A DNA stretch of 35,833 nt. Source: an uncultured Nitrososphaerales archaeon. Lineage in GTDB: Archaea; Thermoproteota; Nitrososphaeria; Nitrososphaerales; JACAEJ01. Of the stretch, positions 7,220 to 16,992 are shown piece by piece (positions within the stretch are counted from its first letter, which is position 1; each line of letters opens with the position of its first letter). Under the pieces are notes generated by a model. It made no database searches, had not been told where the DNA came from, and was given only the letters and a program-made list of their open reading frames with translations. Location: positions 1 through 35,833 of the forward strand of contig CALLJF010000014.1 of assembly GCA_938091495.1 (NCBI GenBank), given 5' to 3'. The position numbers and the translations under genes were made by a program.

Positions 7220-9055
7220 ATGGATATGTTAAAAACTAAGCAGGTTGCTAATAATTTGTTCAAGAGACGTAATGGGGAAAAGCTTCCAAGAGCATCTAGC
7301 ATCATGTTGACTTTTGTAATCCTTACTGGACTTTTCGTAACCCCTATGCTCGGATTAACTGTCAATTTAGGCAATTTATCAAATGAATTATTGATTAAAT
7401 TCAAGCCTGGGGTAAGTGAGCAATACAAAGTAGGGCTTCTAAATATACTGGGGCTTGAGATAGAGGACGAAATTCCTCAGACTCAGGTCCTTAAAGTCTC
7501 TGCTTCACGAGGATCTTTACAATACATTAAATCAGAATTATTGAGCAATCCTTTGATAGATTTTGTAGAAGAAGACTTTAAGATACCTCCTTCCATAATT
7601 CCTAATGATCAATATTATTCATCTGAGTGGCACTTAGAAAAAATCTCAGCTCCACAGGCATGGGACATTTCAACAGGAGATTCTAACGTTATAATAGCTG
7701 TTCTCGATAGCGGAGTTGATCCTAACCATCCCGATTTATCGTCAAAATTACTTCAAGGATACAACTTTTACGATAACAACTACAACACTACTGATGTTTA
7801 TGGTCATGGAACAAAGGTTGCAGGAGTTGCTGCAGCATTGACGAACAATACTATAGGTGTCTCATCCATAGGCTGGCAGTGCTCTATATTGCCTTTAAGG
7901 GTCACTGATACGAATGGCTACGCATACTCCTCACTCCTGACTAAAGCCCTGATTTATGCTGCTGATAGAGGTGCCAAAGTTGCAGTGATTAGCTTTGCAA
8001 TATTTGGTGGTAGCATGATATCTGATGCTGCAAAGTACTTCATGGATAAAGGAGGATTGGTAGTTGCTGCTGGAGGCAATGACAATACAAATCACACAGA
8101 CTCTGACAATCCCTACATAATTTCTGTAAGTGCAACTACGAGTAGCGATTCTAGAGCATCCTTCTCCAGTTATGGACCTTACATAGACCTATCGGCCCCA
8201 GGCTCGAGCATCTACACTACGATTAGAGGAGGTAGTTATGGTGGTGTATCTGGCACGTCCTTCTCAGCACCATTGACAGCAGGCTTGGCAGCTTTGATCT
8301 TTTCAGCCAACCCATCTTTGACCCCTACTCAAGTGGAGCAGATAATGAAGTCTACAGCCTTAGACCTTGGTGATCCTGGATACGATGTATATTATGGCTA
8401 TGGTAGAATAGACGCTTTAGGGGCTTTGACAAAAGCATCTGGCTTTGCAATTTATAGAGATACAGACCCTCCAAGCGTAATGATAACCTATCCAAGTGAT
8501 GGTGCTACAGTCTCTGGAAGTATCACTATAAGCGTCGATGCCTACGATAATGATTGTGTATCAATGGTAGAACTCTATAAAGATGGAGTCCTATATGCAA
8601 TTGACAATACAGCTCCTTTCAGCTTCTATTGGGATACGAATAACGAATCTAATGGCTTTCATACTTTAATGGCTAAAGCGTATGATGCATCTGGAAACAT
8701 TGGAGAATCAGATTCAGTCAGTATAAATGTATATAATGAAGTAGTTGGCGATGGAACTCCTCCTATTATAAGCATCACAAAACCTAGGAACGGCGCAAAG
8801 GTCTCAGGTAATATAAGGATATCAGCATCTGCATCTGATGAATCTGGTATAAGCAAAGTAGAGTTTTACGTGAATGACAATTTGATAAGCACTGATTATA
8901 GCAATCCTTACTATTGTTATTGGAACACGAAGTCTGTCAGCAATGGTTGGCATACGATAACTGTTAGAGCTTATGATAACTTTGGCAATTTTGCAGATGA
9001 TAGCATAATGGTAAATGTGTATAATAGATTATCGATTAGTAGATGGCGAAGATAA
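7220..9055 (+). CDS. Secreted subtilisin-like serine protease (S8) with two Ig-like repeats
   Basis: 611 residues. A hydrophobic export segment lies at about 28-46. An inhibitor-like propeptide (NELLIKFKPGV to about 122) is followed by the S8 catalytic domain (about 135-405). The triad is complete: D163 (AVLDSGVDPNHPD), H196 (YGHGTKVAG) and S347 (GVSGTSFSAP), with oxyanion Asn N287. The histidine that usually follows GHGT is Lys199. After the protease come two tandem modules of about 95 residues (415-508 and 512-605). Each begins with D/G-x-x-P-P and ends with a VN-V-YN strand, typical of bacterial-Ig-like (Big) domains. No C-terminal anchor is visible. It converges on the gene for the large surface protein, 59 bases away. 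Confidence 0.94.
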   Translation: MDMLKTKQVANNLFKRRNGEKLPRASSIMLTFVILTGLFVTPMLGLTVNLGNLSNELLIKFKPGVSEQYKVGLLNILGLEIEDEIPQTQVLKVSASRGSLQYIKSELLSNPLIDFVEEDFKIPPSIIPNDQYYSSEWHLEKISAPQAWDISTGDSNVIIAVLDSGVDPNHPDLSSKLLQGYNFYDNNYNTTDVYGHGTKVAGVAAALTNNTIGVSSIGWQCSILPLRVTDTNGYAYSSLLTKALIYAADRGAKVAVISFAIFGGSMISDAAKYFMDKGGLVVAAGGNDNTNHTDSDNPYIISVSATTSSDSRASFSSYGPYIDLSAPGSSIYTTIRGGSYGGVSGTSFSAPLTAGLAALIFSANPSLTPTQVEQIMKSTALDLGDPGYDVYYGYGRIDALGALTKASGFAIYRDTDPPSVMITYPSDGATVSGSITISVDAYDNDCVSMVELYKDGVLYAIDNTAPFSFYWDTNNESNGFHTLMAKAYDASGNIGESDSVSINVYNEVVGDGTPPIISITKPRNGAKVSGNIRISASASDESGISKVEFYVNDNLISTDYSNPYYCYWNTKSVSNGWHTITVRAYDNFGNFADDSIMVNVYNRLSISRWRR

Positions 9056-9072
9056 AGAAATTTGATGGTTGA

Positions 9073-9104
9073 GATATTCGCAGTTTATTCAACTCACGAA
9101 TATC
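9073..9104. terminator. Inverted repeat between convergent genes, possible bidirectional terminator
   Basis: GATATTCG (9073-9080) and CGAATATC (9097-9104) form a perfect 8-bp stem with a 16-base loop, in the 59-base gap between the protease and surface-protein stop codons. No long T tract follows on either side, so a termination role is inferred from position. Confidence 0.4.
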
Positions 9105-9114
9105 CCAGCGGCTG

Positions 9115-11718
9115 CTAGGTAGGAAGTTTGAAGCTTACCGTATGATGGAAGACATGAATTCCATCAGGATGGTTAAAAATCGTCACTTCAACAGTATTCC
9201 TCCAAGAAGCGTTAGCCGGTATTCCAGATGCATCGAAGATTGCGTAGTACTGAAGCGTTACGGTCTGACCTGCATCTACAGTTGTGATGACTGGTTCATA
9301 GACGAATTCTGAGGGCTTAATTTGAACCCAGATGTTGTTCCCTTGTTCCTTGTATTCAATTATGTCGTTTATGCTCATTATGATTGCATCGTATGAGCCG
9401 GTGTTTTTGTTTTTTATTGTGATAGTCCCTGTTATGTTGTAAGTTCTTGTAACCATGTTGTAAGTTCTTGTAACCCCGTCGACTGTTTTGGTAACAGTTA
9501 AACTTGTAACTCCGAACCTATATTCATTTGTCACTTCTCCAGTAATGTTTTCTATTCCGCTATCGATTACGATCTCCGTATTGGTAGTCTTGTCGATTGT
9601 GTAGATCTTCCAGTCATATAGTCCAGGCGTAAGATTTGGAATCGTTCCTGAGCGATATGTAGCAGTACCAGTCAACTCGACCGATTGCCATCCATCCTGC
9701 GTATCAGCAAGTCTCACAGCTCCATAGTATGTATAACCTGTCTGTGGGTTGTTCTTTGTTAATGTCAACACGAAGGTCTTTGTAACCTGTAATGCATATA
9801 CGTTCACTGTGACTTTTTCATTATCAGAATTTAGTAAGCCTTTATCGCCTGTTACCGTTGCTGTATCATTAATAACATACGTTCCTGCTGTACTACTCTT
9901 GACATTTTTATCGAATTCGAAGGTAGTAGTTGAATTAATAGTCTGAGGCCATTTAGGCTCATTACTACTTACTAAGTCTAGACCGCATGGAATAGTCTCG
10001 TCATCGCTCACTTGTACCTCATTATTCGCTAACCCAGTAGGTTTGCCAGGTAGGCTGAAACTTTCTATAGCTTCTGGTCCATAATCATATCCTAAGTGAC
10101 CAGAGTAGTTTGTGATGGTTATAATCGCTATATTTCTGTACTCTGTTGCATTTTCATAAGGAGTGAATTCTATCTCATAGTTGTAATATTTTGTTTGTCC
10201 TATCGATATGGTATCGTTACCCTTTGCTACGATTTCCATTGTCGTTATATTGACCCAATTTCCGTCTACATAGGCTTGTACAACATCTCTGATCCATAAC
10301 CCCTCAGTATCTACTGATCCAGTATTATTGACTGTAATATTGCCTGAAACATAGTATCTTTCTGTAAGCTCAGTCTTTGTTACAGTTATTGTATAATGTA
10401 TAGTGCCCTGATCATTCACGAATAAATTCAGTGTGCTTGGAGTTACGCTCTTATCTATATTCCATGTGTAGTTTTTTATCCAATGGCCAGTGGCTGTCTT
10501 TGAAGCACTCAGTGTAGTGGTTTGTTTATTTCCAAAGTTTTTACCATCAAAACTATTGCCGAGGTATTCTTCATTGATGGTTATTTCATAGTAGCCATTG
10601 TCTGGTGCTGTTTGATCCCATCCTTGCTGTAGAGTCTCGTAAACTTTGTAAGTGCCTGCTTCACTGACAGAGAATTCATAATATCCATTCTTATCAGTAG
10701 TAGTATTACCTACTTGAACCCATTGGTTTCCATCCCATTTGTGTAGTGTAATTGTCCAACCAGATAGCACTTCTTCACCATCATTTTTTATGCCATCACC
10801 ATTTCTATCGTGAAACTTTATGCCTGAGATAGTACTGACTTCCTGTGGTGGAGTTATTGTCTCAGCTTCCAGTTTGAAAGGATCTATTATGATTAGATCC
10901 TGATATCTAGAATTGGTTAGATCTACTATCTTTGGCCATCCGCCCATTGTATAAGCAGTTACTTTATAAGGATAGTCTCCAAAGTATTCTACAGTTGCTT
11001 GACCACTAGTATCTGTGAAGGCATAGGTCGAGGTTATTGTCTCAGTATCACTAAAACTACCGCCTTCCTCGTCGGTGCTGAAGATAATCTTAACGTCTTT
11101 TCTAGGAGGATTAAGGGTTGCTATCATGGTAAAACTGGATGATTCTTCCCACGTCAATGTTAACGTATCTCCTTGGCGAGCTACATTATGGCCATTTGCT
11201 TCGTTATAAATTACATTCATCCTAGTAACTACGGATGATGGCCAAATTACGCCATAGGGTGGTGAGAAGAATACTCTCCAGATGGCTCCTTGAATAGATG
11301 CGGCCTCAAAATTTGGGTTTGGTGCTATCTTTGGATCATACCATGCGGTTATATAGGCTATGCGTCTAAATTGTGTAGTATCAGGGGCATCTGTTATGTT
11401 TTTTATCGATCCAGTCCCCAAGCGATGATTTATGTCTATACAGTATCCTTCATATACTTTGCCATCAATAACCAACCTTAAGAGGCCAGCTTTGCAGGAA
11501 TAAATTCCAAAAGATTGACTTCGGATCCAGACTCTTTGGCCATAAACAACAGTAACAGAAGTTAGATTGGCTGCTAAGGCGATTTGAGAGACTAACGCAA
11601 ATGAGAGAATTACTAAAATAGCTATACCTATAGTCTTTTTCTTCAATTTCGCTGAGAATTTTAACGCGATAAAGTCCTTAATTAACCTTTCCTTTATATG
11701 CCCGTTATTTTGCTGCAA
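9115..11718 (-). CDS. Large secreted surface protein with a thioester-domain signature and an SdrD-B-like domain
   Basis: 867 residues. A signal peptide (KLKKKTIGIAILVILSF, cleavage near residue 50) is followed by a region at about 55-165 with GYCIDIN (Cys93) and ASIQGAIWRVF (Gln143). These match the [YFL]C-hydrophobic and hydrophobic-Q-x-x motifs of thioester (TED/TQXA) domains of Gram-positive adhesins, where Cys and Gln side chains form an internal thioester. A beta module follows, then at about 296-398 an SdrD-B-like domain with DRNGDGIKNDGEE (calcium loop) and a closing FGN. The remaining 460 residues are beta-rich with many N-x-S/T sequons, so glycosylation is likely. There is no C-terminal membrane helix or LPXTG. 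The start is TTG, with an AT-rich TATA-like element about 25-30 bases upstream. Confidence 0.8.
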   Translation of the reverse strand: MQQNNGHIKERLIKDFIALKFSAKLKKKTIGIAILVILSFALVSQIALAANLTSVTVVYGQRVWIRSQSFGIYSCKAGLLRLVIDGKVYEGYCIDINHRLGTGSIKNITDAPDTTQFRRIAYITAWYDPKIAPNPNFEAASIQGAIWRVFFSPPYGVIWPSSVVTRMNVIYNEANGHNVARQGDTLTLTWEESSSFTMIATLNPPRKDVKIIFSTDEEGGSFSDTETITSTYAFTDTSGQATVEYFGDYPYKVTAYTMGGWPKIVDLTNSRYQDLIIIDPFKLEAETITPPQEVSTISGIKFHDRNGDGIKNDGEEVLSGWTITLHKWDGNQWVQVGNTTTDKNGYYEFSVSEAGTYKVYETLQQGWDQTAPDNGYYEITINEEYLGNSFDGKNFGNKQTTTLSASKTATGHWIKNYTWNIDKSVTPSTLNLFVNDQGTIHYTITVTKTELTERYYVSGNITVNNTGSVDTEGLWIRDVVQAYVDGNWVNITTMEIVAKGNDTISIGQTKYYNYEIEFTPYENATEYRNIAIITITNYSGHLGYDYGPEAIESFSLPGKPTGLANNEVQVSDDETIPCGLDLVSSNEPKWPQTINSTTTFEFDKNVKSSTAGTYVINDTATVTGDKGLLNSDNEKVTVNVYALQVTKTFVLTLTKNNPQTGYTYYGAVRLADTQDGWQSVELTGTATYRSGTIPNLTPGLYDWKIYTIDKTTNTEIVIDSGIENITGEVTNEYRFGVTSLTVTKTVDGVTRTYNMVTRTYNITGTITIKNKNTGSYDAIIMSINDIIEYKEQGNNIWVQIKPSEFVYEPVITTVDAGQTVTLQYYAIFDASGIPANASWRNTVEVTIFNHPDGIHVFHHTVSFKLPT
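9434..9475 (-). repeat. Tandem 21-bp duplication inside the surface-protein gene
   Basis: A 21-base unit occurs twice with no difference (9434-9454 and 9455-9475). It keeps frame and doubles the heptad VTRTYN-M/I. It looks like a recent replication-slippage event in a beta-strand region. Confidence 0.85.
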
Positions 11719-11815
11719 GTATACGTTGCAGATGCGTTATTTATTGGGACTAAGCCGAAGATTTACTTTGAACAGCTTTATGAATAAGATAATTCGAGGG
11801 GTTAGGATTCCGCTT

Positions 11816-11881
11816 CTATATGTCAAAGTATAGATAGAATTCATGAGGATGAGGTCTTATAGCTATCTCCAAAGACTCTCT
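11816..11881 (-). pseudogene. Orphan copy of the glnA 3' end (glutamine synthetase remnant)
   Basis: These 66 bases align with glnA positions 12797-12862 at 59 of 66 and encode the same C-terminus, LEIAIRPHPHEFYLYFDI, plus a stop. Of seven differences one changes an amino acid (Tyr to Ser), one swaps the stop codon and the rest are silent. This suggests the fragment diverged while still part of a working glutamine synthetase gene. Upstream of it (by its own strand) the similarity stops abruptly and the vapBC genes begin. It has no recognisable start. Confidence 0.8.
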
Positions 11882-11963
11882 TTCATAACAAAAGAAGAAT
11901 GTGCGCCAATAGAGCCTAACAAACTTAAATACCAGTTTACATGTTAAGTTCTTTAGAGTATGC

Positions 11964-12254
11964 TTGAAAAAAGTTAGCCTGTATTTAAATGAGGATTTAT
12001 GGAACAAGTTTAAGGAGGCTGTTTTAAGAAGGCATGGAACATTAAGAAGGCTAAGTAGTGAAGTTGAAGAACTGCTTAGAACTTCTCTGGTCGATGAAGA
12101 TGTTGAGCAAGCCTTCAAGAGGATGAATTTTGATATGAAGACCATCTTCTCCCCTGAAGGGGTAAAGCAGGGTAGACCTAAGCTTCAAGGCCCACCCTCA
12201 GAGATCATTATCCGAGAGATGAGGGGAAGACGTATTGCTGAGGGTCTATCTTGA
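11964..12254 (+). CDS. vapB: Antitoxin of a VapBC pair (ribbon-helix-helix-like)
   Basis: 96 residues. The N-terminus KKVSLYLNEDLWNKFKEAV is a typical ribbon-helix-helix strand plus helix, which binds the operon promoter as a dimer. The C-terminal part (about 55-96), rich in Arg, Lys and Pro, is expected to wrap round the toxin. The start is TTG; a TATA-like CTTAAATACC about 30-40 bases upstream supports it. It overlaps the PIN-domain toxin gene by 20 bases, the usual toxin-antitoxin layout. Autoregulation is likely from the family, but no operator palindrome stood out. Confidence 0.85.
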   Translation: MKKVSLYLNEDLWNKFKEAVLRRHGTLRRLSSEVEELLRTSLVDEDVEQAFKRMNFDMKTIFSPEGVKQGRPKLQGPPSEIIIREMRGRRIAEGLS

Positions 12255-12720
12255 TAGCAGTGCGCTAGTCAAAAGGTATGTATCTGAGCCTGGCAGCTCT
12301 GGGGTAGATTACGTGTTCGATAAAGGTTGGGCAGGCGAAGTATCCATTATCTCGTCCGTCTGGAATATTGGTGAAGTATTGGGAGTATTCGATGAGAGAA
12401 GGAGAAGAGGCTGGCTTAGCGAGAGTGAGTTTAAGAAGGTCTTGGAGGGCTTTGCAAGCGAAACCGTAAGGTTAATACGCTTAAAGGTCTTAGAGATGCT
12501 TCCTGTTCTAACTCCAACTCTTATTGAAGCTTGGCCCTTGATCTTAAATGAGCACATTTATGAAGCTGATGCTCTTCAAATCCAAACATGTATACATTCT
12601 GGTAGCAATTTACTCTTAAGTAGCGATAAAGAATTAGTTAACGTTGCATTAAAAGCAGGTTTAAAAGCCATAAACGTTAAAGATGAAGATAGGATCAAAG
12701 AATTATTTAATGAAGAATAG
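12235..12720 (+). CDS. vapC: PIN-domain toxin, VapC family
   Basis: 161-residue PIN-fold ribonuclease, expected to cleave tRNA or rRNA when freed from VapB. The acidic metal-binding residues are all present: D7 (VYLDSSALVK), E47 (NIGEVLG), D112 (YEADALQ) and D131 (LSSDKEL). The TTG start at 12235 sits inside the antitoxin gene. The pair lies between glnA and a detached glnA tail, so it is probably an acquired cassette. The cleavage target cannot be predicted. Confidence 0.9.
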   Translation: MLRVYLDSSALVKRYVSEPGSSGVDYVFDKGWAGEVSIISSVWNIGEVLGVFDERRRRGWLSESEFKKVLEGFASETVRLIRLKVLEMLPVLTPTLIEAWPLILNEHIYEADALQIQTCIHSGSNLLLSSDKELVNVALKAGLKAINVKDEDRIKELFNEE

Positions 12721-12796
12721 AAAGCTTGATGCCTAACATTATGATCAAGACCATTTATGATTTACATGTATCATAGTCTCGTTAGAAGTTATAGCT

Positions 12797-14302
12797 TTAT
12801 ATGTCAAAGTAAAGATAGAATTCATGAGGATGAGGCCTTATGGCTATCTCTAGATACTCTCTCATCCCGTTCTCTACTAGCTTGTCTATGCATTCATCTG
12901 TGAATATCGATTTAAGATAATCTCTATCACTCTCCAATTCCTCTATTGCTTCCTTAAGGCTTCCTGGAAGCTCTCTTATCCCAAGTTGCCTTCTCCTTTC
13001 AGGACTTAGTTTGTATATGTCTTCATCGACAGGGTCTCCTATGTCTATCTTCTTCTTTATGCCATCCAATCCAGCAGCTATCATAGCAGAGAAGCAGAAG
13101 TATGGGTTACAAGAAGGATCAGGGGTTCTGAACTCTATCCTTTTAGCTGCTGAGCTATTTGGACCTTTTTGATATACAGGTATTCTTATGTTAGCAGATC
13201 TATTGCGGCGAGACCAAGCAATGAATACTGGTGCTTCATAGCCAGGAACCAATCTTCTGTAGGAGTTTGTAGTAGGAGCTACTATTGCAGCCAATGATCT
13301 GCTATGCTCCATCAACCCTCCAGCAAAGTATCGACCTAGTTGGCTCAATTCTGCATAAGAATCGTCAGGATCATAGAAAAGGTTCTGATTATTGTTCCAT
13401 AAACTAACATGAACGTGCATTCCTGAGGCATTGTCCATGAAGACAGGTTTGGGCATAAAAGTGGCTATCATTCCTTTCTGATGGGCTATGTTCTTCACAA
13501 TGAACTTGTAGGTCATAACGTTATCAGCCATCCTCGTCAAAGTGTCATAGTGTATATCTATCTCACACTGACCAGCTGTAGCTACTTCATGATGATGGGC
13601 ATCACAAGGGATGTAAAAAGATTCTTCCATGGTTTTAACACACTCAGCCCTGAAGTCCATCAATGTATCTTGTGGTGGAGCTGGAAAGTAGCCTTCTTTG
13701 AACCTTATAGGATAGTTCATCCCTGAAGAACTCCATAAAGCCTCTCTCGACTCTATCTTGTAGCCTTGGCTGTAAAAGGGCGTTACAGTATCAAAAGTTA
13801 CTTTATCAAAAACAAAGAACTCTAGCTCTGGACCCCAATAAGAGGTATCGTAACCTTCATTCTTTAAGACTTCTTCAGCTCTTTGAGCAACTGCCCTAGG
13901 CTCTCTCGAAAACCTCCCAAGCCCATAGCCCCAATATACATCACAGATCATTCTTGCCGTTTTTATACTATCTGAAATCCAAGGAATTATAGCCAGTGTG
14001 GAAGGATCTGGCTTAAGGTTCATATCTGATTCATGGATATCGACGAATCCCCTTATGGAAGAGCCATCTAGCTTTGGTACTCCTTCTTTAAAATGATTGA
14101 GCTTTAGAGTATGAGCAGGAATAGTTACATGTTGTAACCTTCCAGGACCGTCTGTAAACTGAAGGTCGACGAACTTCACTTTCTGTTCCTCTATGATCTG
14201 TAGAGCTTCTTCAGGGCTTATGATCAACGGCTCTAGCTTGCCGTCAGCTCCTATTCTGTAAGGCATCTTTTCGTCTTCTCTGAATAAAGTTTTCATAGTC
14301 AT
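12797..14302 (-). CDS. glnA: Glutamine synthetase, type I
   Basis: Makes glutamine from glutamate, ammonia and ATP, the main ammonia-assimilation step. About 500 residues, full length for GS-I. Motifs in order: VDLQFTDGPGRLQH, LDGSSIRGF, WGPELEFFVFD, GQCEIDIHYDTL, NASGMHVHVSLW, SRRNRSANIRIP and RIEFRTPDPSCNPYF. The C-terminus HPHEFYLYFDI is the archaeal type. The reading frame opens with ATG at 14302 and again at 14296. The TATA box (14319-14329) predicts a transcript start near 14297, so 14296 may be the true start on a leaderless mRNA. An 11-bp inverted repeat just upstream suggests transcriptional control by nitrogen status. Confidence 0.96.
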   Translation of the reverse strand: MTMKTLFREDEKMPYRIGADGKLEPLIISPEEALQIIEEQKVKFVDLQFTDGPGRLQHVTIPAHTLKLNHFKEGVPKLDGSSIRGFVDIHESDMNLKPDPSTLAIIPWISDSIKTARMICDVYWGYGLGRFSREPRAVAQRAEEVLKNEGYDTSYWGPELEFFVFDKVTFDTVTPFYSQGYKIESREALWSSSGMNYPIRFKEGYFPAPPQDTLMDFRAECVKTMEESFYIPCDAHHHEVATAGQCEIDIHYDTLTRMADNVMTYKFIVKNIAHQKGMIATFMPKPVFMDNASGMHVHVSLWNNNQNLFYDPDDSYAELSQLGRYFAGGLMEHSRSLAAIVAPTTNSYRRLVPGYEAPVFIAWSRRNRSANIRIPVYQKGPNSSAAKRIEFRTPDPSCNPYFCFSAMIAAGLDGIKKKIDIGDPVDEDIYKLSPERRRQLGIRELPGSLKEAIEELESDRDYLKSIFTDECIDKLVENGMREYLEIAIRPHPHEFYLYFDI

Positions 14303-16780: not shown

Positions 16781-16855
16781 TTAAACCATCTTTTACCGCA
16801 TATTATGATATAAAACTCTATCGGATAGTGAGATTTAATCTGATTAATTTTGTAA

Positions 16856-16941
16856 TGGGCCGGACCGGATTTGAACCGGCGACCTTTGAGTGTCTGAATT
16901 TTTATCAGCTCAACGCTCTAACCATGCTGAGCTACCGGCCC
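16856..16941 (-). tRNA. tRNA-Ile(GAU) with an 11-nt intron
   Basis: Acceptor arms GGGCCGG and CCGGCCC pair fully, with discriminator A at 16856 and no encoded CCA. D arm GCTC/GAGC, anticodon stem TTGAG/CTCAA and T arm GCCGG-TTCAAAT-CCGGT complete the cloverleaf. The anticodon loop is 18 bases instead of 7. Placing an intron at the canonical 37/38 site (16892-16902) leaves loop CTGATAA with anticodon GAT. CTGA can pair with TCAG in the intron, as in a relaxed bulge-helix-bulge. The exact splice ends are inferred. Confidence 0.93.
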
Positions 16942-16992
16942 ACTTTATGAGTTAAAGTTGTCAAGAGTTTTTATGCTTTTTTATGTGATAAA

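What the first reader, a model, noticed from the sequence alone, without database searches (positions are those of the whole stretch)
9115..11718. Archaeal surface protein with a Gram-positive-type thioester domain signature
Seen: after a signal peptide, GYCIDIN (Cys93) and, 50 residues on, ASIQGAIWRVF (Gln143), then an SdrD-B-like calcium module and a sequon-rich beta stalk. Known: in Gram-positive TED/TQXA adhesins the same two motifs supply the Cys and Gln that form an internal thioester used to bond covalently to host or surface ligands, and these domains often precede SdrD-B or Cna-B modules. Inference: this archaeon may carry a covalent-attachment adhesin, a chemistry rarely considered outside Gram-positives. 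No LPXTG or membrane anchor is visible, so surface retention would need another route.
Basis: partly seen in the sequence, partly recalled or inferred. Interest (0 to 1): 0.82.

Follow-up and report, generated by a model that had tools for sequence, protein, structure and literature searches.

The report
Archaeal class II-type thioester adhesin domain

Summary
The protein is as described: secreted, with GYCID (Cys93), IQGAIW (Gln143), an SdrD_B module, a sequon-rich stalk, and no LPXTG or C-terminal membrane helix. The window protein itself does not match Pfam TED. Its profile does find homologues (one in its own family, ten Bathyarchaeota proteins used in the alignment), two of which exceed the Pfam TED gathering score. 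An AlphaFold model of residues 49-290 (pLDDT 84, pTM 0.83) has as its best solved matches the class II thioester-domain proteins BaTIE (Foldseek E 9.5e-8) and SaTIE. So the thioester-domain reading is supported.

In characterised TEDs the Gln of the QxxIW helix motif does not form the bond; a Gln in a C-terminal PhiQzetaPhiPhi strand does. Here that is RYQDLI, Gln273. Across 12 homologues exactly one Cys column (Cys93) and one Gln column (Gln273) are invariant; Gln143 is Ala in one. Between helix and Gln273 lies a Big_1-like Ig sandwich, as in class II ('slipknot') TEDs.

The gene sits beside a subtilase in a slot that holds a different surface protein in sister genomes. The thioester and the covalent target are inferred, not shown. 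A 2015 survey found TEDs only in Gram-positives.

The parts
9115..11718 (-). whole ORF of the TED surface protein (867 aa; probable real start TTG at 11646, 843 aa)
11569..11646 (-). signal peptide (residues 25-50, ALA/A cleavage site)
   Evidence: sequence; aligns with the ATG start and signal peptide of the G003 homologue
10849..11574 (-). class II-type thioester domain, residues 49-290: beta-barrel + three helices + inserted Ig sandwich + returning hairpin
   Evidence: AF2 model; Foldseek to 6fwv and 6fx6; homologues over Pfam TED cut-off
11440..11442 (-). Cys93, thioester Cys in GYCID, strand C of the model
   Evidence: invariant 12/12
11278..11292 (-). QGAIW (Gln143-Trp147), TQxxPhiW helix motif; not the bond-forming Gln
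   Evidence: Gln 11/12, Trp 12/12
10891..10905 (-). YQDLI (residues 272-276), PhiQzetaPhiPhi motif; Gln273 is the likely thioester partner
   Evidence: QDL invariant 12/12; parallel to invariant Q-x-L of pLS20-type TEDs
10942..11166 (-). Ig-like (Big_1-type) sandwich inserted between helix 3 and Gln273, residues 185-259 (model strands 137-211)
   Evidence: PF02369 over cut-off in homologue L007
10522..10833 (-). SdrD_B module, residues ~296-399, with Lys301/Glu361/Asn394 or Asn397 spaced like isopeptide-forming SdrD_B
   Evidence: PF17210; spacing compared with PMC12617251
9115..10521 (-). sequon-rich beta stalk, residues 400-867, no membrane anchor
   Evidence: AF2 model of this part unusable (pLDDT 34)
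7220..9055 (+). secreted subtilase (Peptidase_S8 + two Big_7), convergent neighbour, also next to the TED gene in G003

Best explanation
The gene encodes a secreted fibrillar surface protein of a non-ammonia-oxidising archaeon whose order also holds AmoA-bearing families (Nitrososphaerales by inference). [quoted passage not shown] Cys93 (strand C) and Gln273 (returning hairpin after an inserted Ig sandwich) most likely condense spontaneously to an internal thioester, with loss of ammonia; Gln143 and Trp147 lie on the helix beside it, as in bacterial TEDs. The thioester would be attacked by an amine (or hydroxyl) on a partner surface, fixing the protein covalently through Gln273. The SdrD_B module and the probably glycosylated stalk hold the tip away from the cell. 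Shown here: domain homology, predicted fold, conservation of Cys and Gln. Inferred: the bond, its reactivity, the ligand, and how the protein is retained.
For: Profile search with the window domain plus its G003 homologue finds Bathyarchaeota homologues at E 5.5e-21 to 5.1e-9 and, with a fuller profile, further ones at E 2e-96 or better. Of these, L034 (25.5 bits) and L011 (23.2) exceed the Pfam TED cut-off of 22, and seven others score 13.6-21.8. AF2 model pLDDT 83.7, pTM 0.83, with strand-Cys, three helices, Ig sandwich, returning strands, as described for class II TEDs. Foldseek against the PDB: ranks 1-2 BaTIE (E 9.5e-8, prob 1.00), rank 3 SaTIE-TED (E 0.017, prob 0.97); no match outside the TEDs has E below 0.019. 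Only Cys93 and Gln273 are invariant among Cys and Gln columns. The Cys-Gln spacing (180) lies within class II values computed from PMC6194298. Bacterial pLS20-type TEDs keep Cys and a C-terminal Q-x-L.
Against: The window protein itself has no Pfam TED match at E<=1; membership rests on intermediates and on fold. Profile-profile comparison with eight pLS20-type TEDs is weak (hhalign prob 2.8, E 0.016, though Cys aligns with Cys). Whole-domain TM-score to BaTIE is only 0.48, with rmsd 11 A. No anchor is visible. No experiment.
Confidence: 0.82

Rival explanations
1. One reading: thioester between Cys93 and Gln143 of the QxxIW motif.
For: Both motifs are present, and Gln143 is conserved in 11 of 12.
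Against: In bacterial TEDs this Gln is on helix 2, contacts the Cys backbone and is not essential for the bond; the bonding Gln is elsewhere. One homologue (L010) has Ala here and keeps Cys and QDLI.
Confidence: 0.04
2. TED fold kept as a non-covalent adhesive or structural tip, with no thioester formed in this protein; Cys93 might instead pair with the extra Cys75.
For: Cys75 is in the window protein but not in its G003 homologue. One homologue has a degenerate helix motif and one is broken by a stop.
Against: Cys93 and Gln273 are invariant in 12/12, including proteins that lack Cys75.
Confidence: 0.12
3. Ordinary archaeal surface stalk protein with chance motifs, unrelated to TEDs.
For: No Pfam TED match for the window protein itself; no TED found by sequence in the PDB.
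Against: Homologues over the Pfam TED cut-off and class II TEDs as top structural matches.
Confidence: 0.03
4. A variant of the best explanation, differing in the target: the thioester reacts with the cell's own envelope (S-layer or glycan) and so replaces a missing anchor, rather than binding a partner cell or particle.
For: The protein is secreted with no LPXTG or membrane helix; the ten Bathyarchaeota relatives have a C-terminal hydrophobic segment that the window protein lacks.
Against: No direct evidence; the bacterial TED with a known target binds outward (SfbI to fibrinogen).
Confidence: 0.2

Closest known systems
Class II thioester domains of Gram-positive TIE proteins (BaTIE 6FWV, SaTIE 6FX6, EfmTIE86; pLS20 p34)
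   Same: YC-hydrophobic-hydrophilic Cys motif, QxxIW-type helix motif, three-helix bundle, Ig-like sandwich inserted before the returning hairpin with the Gln, Cys-Gln spacing 180 against 171-204, N-terminal position, TED followed by a CnaB/SdrD_B-like stalk module.
   Different: Archaeal; sequence too diverged for Pfam TED to see the window member; inserted sandwich is recognisably Big_1-like in a homologue; Gln motif is QDLI; no LPXTG anchor (hydrophobic tail in Bathyarchaeota, none in the window).
Class I thioester domains (SfbI, Cpa, PnTIE, CpTIE)
   Same: Same core fold, Cys motif and QxxIW motif. Archaeal relatives L050, L051 and L054 look closer to this class, with a PGxG[QD][VI]xA[IV]L stretch soon after the helix.
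   Different: No inserted sandwich and an extra alpha0 helix in class I; the window protein has the sandwich and no alpha0 in the model.
Archaeal alpha2-macroglobulin/TEP homologues (CxEQ thioester)
   Same: Predicted secreted archaeal proteins with an internal thioester (PMC8416519).
   Different: Unrelated fold and motif (CxEQ, adjacent Cys and Gln), complement-like; no such motif at Cys93 here.
Archaeal fibrillar adhesin-like proteins with DUF11/SdrD_B isopeptide domains (PMC12617251)
   Same: Secreted, stalk of beta modules, SdrD_B with a Lys-Glu-Asn triad.
   Different: That survey reports that co-occurring known domains are rarely detected in archaeal members; here the N-terminal domain is a TED.

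Membership tests
Pfam TED (PF08341) | Window protein scores over the gathering cut-off | tested here: not met
   no match at E<=1
Pfam TED (PF08341) | Clear homologues of the domain score over the gathering cut-off | tested here: met
   L034 25.5, L011 23.2 bits against 22; homology to the window by profile search
Thioester domains (TED superfamily) | Cys in [YFL]C-hydrophobic-hydrophilic, invariant | tested here: met
   GYCID; 12/12
Thioester domains (TED superfamily) | Gln in C-terminal PhiQzetaPhiPhi, invariant | tested here: met
   YQDLI in the window; QDL 12/12, though the residue before Gln is not always hydrophobic in homologues
Thioester domains (TED superfamily) | TQxxPhiW helix motif | tested here: met
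   IQGAIW on model helix 87-102 (Ile in place of Thr); Gln 11/12, Trp 12/12
Thioester domains (TED superfamily) | Internal Cys-Gln thioester (-17 Da) | not testable with these tools
   needs protein and mass spectrometry
Class II TED | No alpha0 between strand D and alpha1 | tested here: met
   model: strand 57-62 then helix 67-78
Class II TED | Beta-sandwich between alpha3 and the Gln hairpin | tested here: met
   model strands 137-211 between helix 113-126 and Gln at model residue 225; Big_1 in homologue L007
Class II TED | Fold match to solved class II TEDs | tested here: met
   6fwv E 9.5e-8 prob 1.00; 6fx6 prob 0.97; but TM 0.48 over the whole domain
Class II TED | Slipknot threading of the Gln hairpin through the N-terminal lobe | not testable with these tools
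   model coordinates not exposed
TIE protein | LPXTG sortase anchor | tested here: not met
   none; no C-terminal hydrophobic segment
TIE protein | Isopeptide stalk domains | tested here: inconclusive
   SdrD_B present with a suitably spaced Lys301/Glu361/Asn394-397; bond not shown, stalk model unusable
Complement/alpha2-macroglobulin thioester family | CxEQ motif | tested here: not met
   GYCIDIN at Cys93 in the window sequence; no alpha2-macroglobulin family match

The most novel reading that the evidence does not exclude
Thermoproteota archaea (Bathyarchaeota and a non-ammonia-oxidising family of an AmoA-bearing order) possess their own lineage of class II-type thioester domains, with a Big_1-like Ig insert and a QDLI glutamine motif, used for covalent attachment at the archaeal surface and exchanged as a cassette in a subtilase-linked surface-protein slot; TED chemistry is then not a Gram-positive peculiarity.
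Probability: 0.6. Interest if true: 0.75.

Novelty: new variant of a known kind. Interest (0 to 1): 0.62.

Why it matters
The 2015 survey that described TEDs found them exclusively in Gram-positive bacteria (PMC4450167), and I found no paper in the searched library describing a bacterial-type TED in archaea. If the bond forms, covalent surface attachment by a spontaneous thioester exists in a second domain of life with quite different envelopes and no known animal host, which raises what the ligand is and how old the domain is. It is cheap to test: one small domain, one mass spectrum, a few point mutants. It also corrects a trap in motif-based annotation, where the eye-catching QxxIW Gln is taken for the bonding one.

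Tried and rejected
Direct Pfam and NCBIfam scans of the window protein: no TED. PF08341 against the own genome: nothing, and none of the 14 control genomes has the family, so not informative alone. PDB sequence searches with the two- and twelve-row profiles gave only chance hits. Viral, plasmid and first genome-contig scans with the window protein: no relatives. Profile-profile comparison with one or eight pLS20-type TEDs: inconclusive. AF2 of the stalk: pLDDT 34, discarded. Low-scoring hits L012-L023 were inspected in part and look unrelated. L048, a TED over the cut-off in a Bathyarchaeota bin, looks like a bacterial sequence and may be contamination; not used. L031/L043 has an in-frame TGA and was left out of the alignment. 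Alpha2-macroglobulin-type thioester: rejected, no CxEQ.

Full report
What is there. The ORF 9115-11718 (-) encodes 867 residues from a TTG. A signal peptide is clear, but the homologue in G003 starts with ATG at the position of the TTG of residue 25, so the N-terminus is probably 24 residues shorter. SdrD_B (PF17210, 44.2 bits, cut-off 29.7) follows at residue 301. The rest is a sequon-rich stalk with no LPXTG and no second hydrophobic segment.

Relatives. The window protein has no Pfam TED match at E<=1. Among 61 relatives one full-length homologue was found, in another genus of the same family (G003, 942 aa); its N-terminal region (A3) is 58% identical. A two-row profile of that region found homologues in family f18 of the same phylum at E 5.5e-21 to 5.1e-9, and more on a second round. 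Records of these are titled Candidatus Bathyarchaeota. They are compact: signal peptide, the same domain, and a hydrophobic C-terminal segment after a [VLI]PE motif. L034 (25.5 bits) and L011 (23.2) exceed the Pfam TED cut-off of 22; L007, L024, L030, L033, L009, L010 and L008 score 21.8 to 13.6; L032 does not appear. The link from the window protein to TED is therefore through intermediates.

Which glutamine. [quoted passage not shown] PMC4450167). Gln143 belongs to the helix motif. In the 12-row alignment A5, one Cys column is invariant (Cys93) and one Gln column is invariant (Gln273, in RYQDLI); Gln143 is 11/12, the exception being L010, which reads VAVAIW and keeps Cys and QDLI. Eight TEDs of the pLS20 type keep an invariant Cys and an invariant Q-x-L near the C-terminal end. 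The Cys-Gln spacing of 180 lies within that of the solved class II TEDs (BaTIE 195, SaTIE 171, EfmTIE86 204; computed from residue numbers in PMC6194298).

Fold. AlphaFold of residues 49-290 with the 12-row alignment gave pLDDT 83.7 and pTM 0.83: strand with Cys93, helices 67-78, 87-102 (Gln143, Trp147) and 113-126, a beta-sandwich at 137-211, then strands around Gln273. That is the order given for class II TEDs, including absence of alpha0. Foldseek against the PDB ranks BaTIE chains first and second (E 9.5e-8 and 3.4e-7, prob 1.00) and SaTIE-TED third (E 0.017, prob 0.97); fourth is an intimin Ig domain, which would match the sandwich alone. TM-score is only 0.48 with large rmsd, as would be expected if the two lobes are differently placed, but this was not checked. 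The tool does not return coordinates, so the Cys-Gln distance is not measured, and the slipknot is untested.

Other archaeal TEDs. Pfam TED over 398 genomes of the phylum rings in nine, five over the cut-off, and not in the window's own genome. Besides the Bathyarchaeota class II-like proteins there are class I-like ones in families f20 (L050, L051) and f22 (L054: GWCVD, VTQGAIW, then PGPGQIVAVL); L051 has PGCGDVYAIL at the last of these places but keeps a later AQIVII, as L050 does, so their bonding Gln is unsettled. One of them, L050, also carries SdrD_B and a stalk resembling that of the window protein.

Stalk. Lys301, Glu361 and Asn394 or Asn397 of SdrD_B are spaced much like the triad that PMC12617251 lists for this family (Lys159, Glu218, Asn248), and both SdrD_B copies of G003 keep a K...E...NFGN pattern. 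An isopeptide bond is plausible, not shown. The stalk model is unusable.

Neighbourhood. The convergent neighbour is a secreted subtilase with two Big_7 domains, next to the TED gene in G003 too. In G002 (same genus) the subtilase is 86% identical and, by inspection, flanked by the same outer genes (dihydropteroate synthase on one side, glutamine synthetase and ketopantoate reductase on the other), but the slot holds a VWA+DUF11 surface protein; G001 has the same VWA+DUF11 gene before glutamine synthetase; in G005 and G006 the position beside the subtilase holds another surface protein (CARDB+DUF11 with a C-terminal hydrophobic segment in G006). The site thus looks like an exchangeable slot for surface proteins; the subtilase may process whatever is in it (inference).

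Organism. AmoA is found in families f2, f8 and f10 of the same order but not in the window's family, so this is probably a non-ammonia-oxidising family of Nitrososphaerales (inference from AmoA; no names are given for these genomes).

Verdict. Literature: the 2015 survey found TEDs exclusively in Gram-positives, and nothing in the searched library reports this type in archaea, while the unrelated CxEQ type has been predicted there. Public domain databases may already list archaeal TED members, since some pass the Pfam cut-off; I could not check that.

Noticed in passing
window 11817-11881 and 12798-12862: 65-nt repeat (91% identical) of the glutamine synthetase 3' end; the stretch between the copies holds a PIN-domain gene (12235-12720) and a small overlapping ORF (11964-12254), resembling a toxin-antitoxin pair inserted at the 3' end of glnA, next to the TED gene.
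   Followed up: partly
window 7220-12797, L072, L073, L074, L075: Beside the subtilase, sister genomes carry a different surface protein (VWA+DUF11, or CARDB+DUF11) where the window has the TED protein.
   Followed up: yes
L050, L051, L054: Other Thermoproteota families have class I-like TEDs with the pattern WC[AV]D ... Q[RG]AIW and a short distance to candidate C-terminal Gln residues.
   Followed up: partly
L048 (G148:C101): A TED over the Pfam cut-off in a Bathyarchaeota genome bin that looks like a bacterial protein; possible contamination.
   Followed up: no
L031, L043: One Bathyarchaeota TED gene has an in-frame TGA at the Trp of QVAIW and a further stop; decaying gene or sequencing error.
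   Followed up: no
window 9434-9475: Two exact tandem copies of 21 nt inside the stalk coding sequence (VTRTYN repeated).
   Followed up: no
window 16855-16942: ARAGORN reports a tRNA-like gene on the - strand with an unassigned four-base anticodon (ataa).
   Followed up: no
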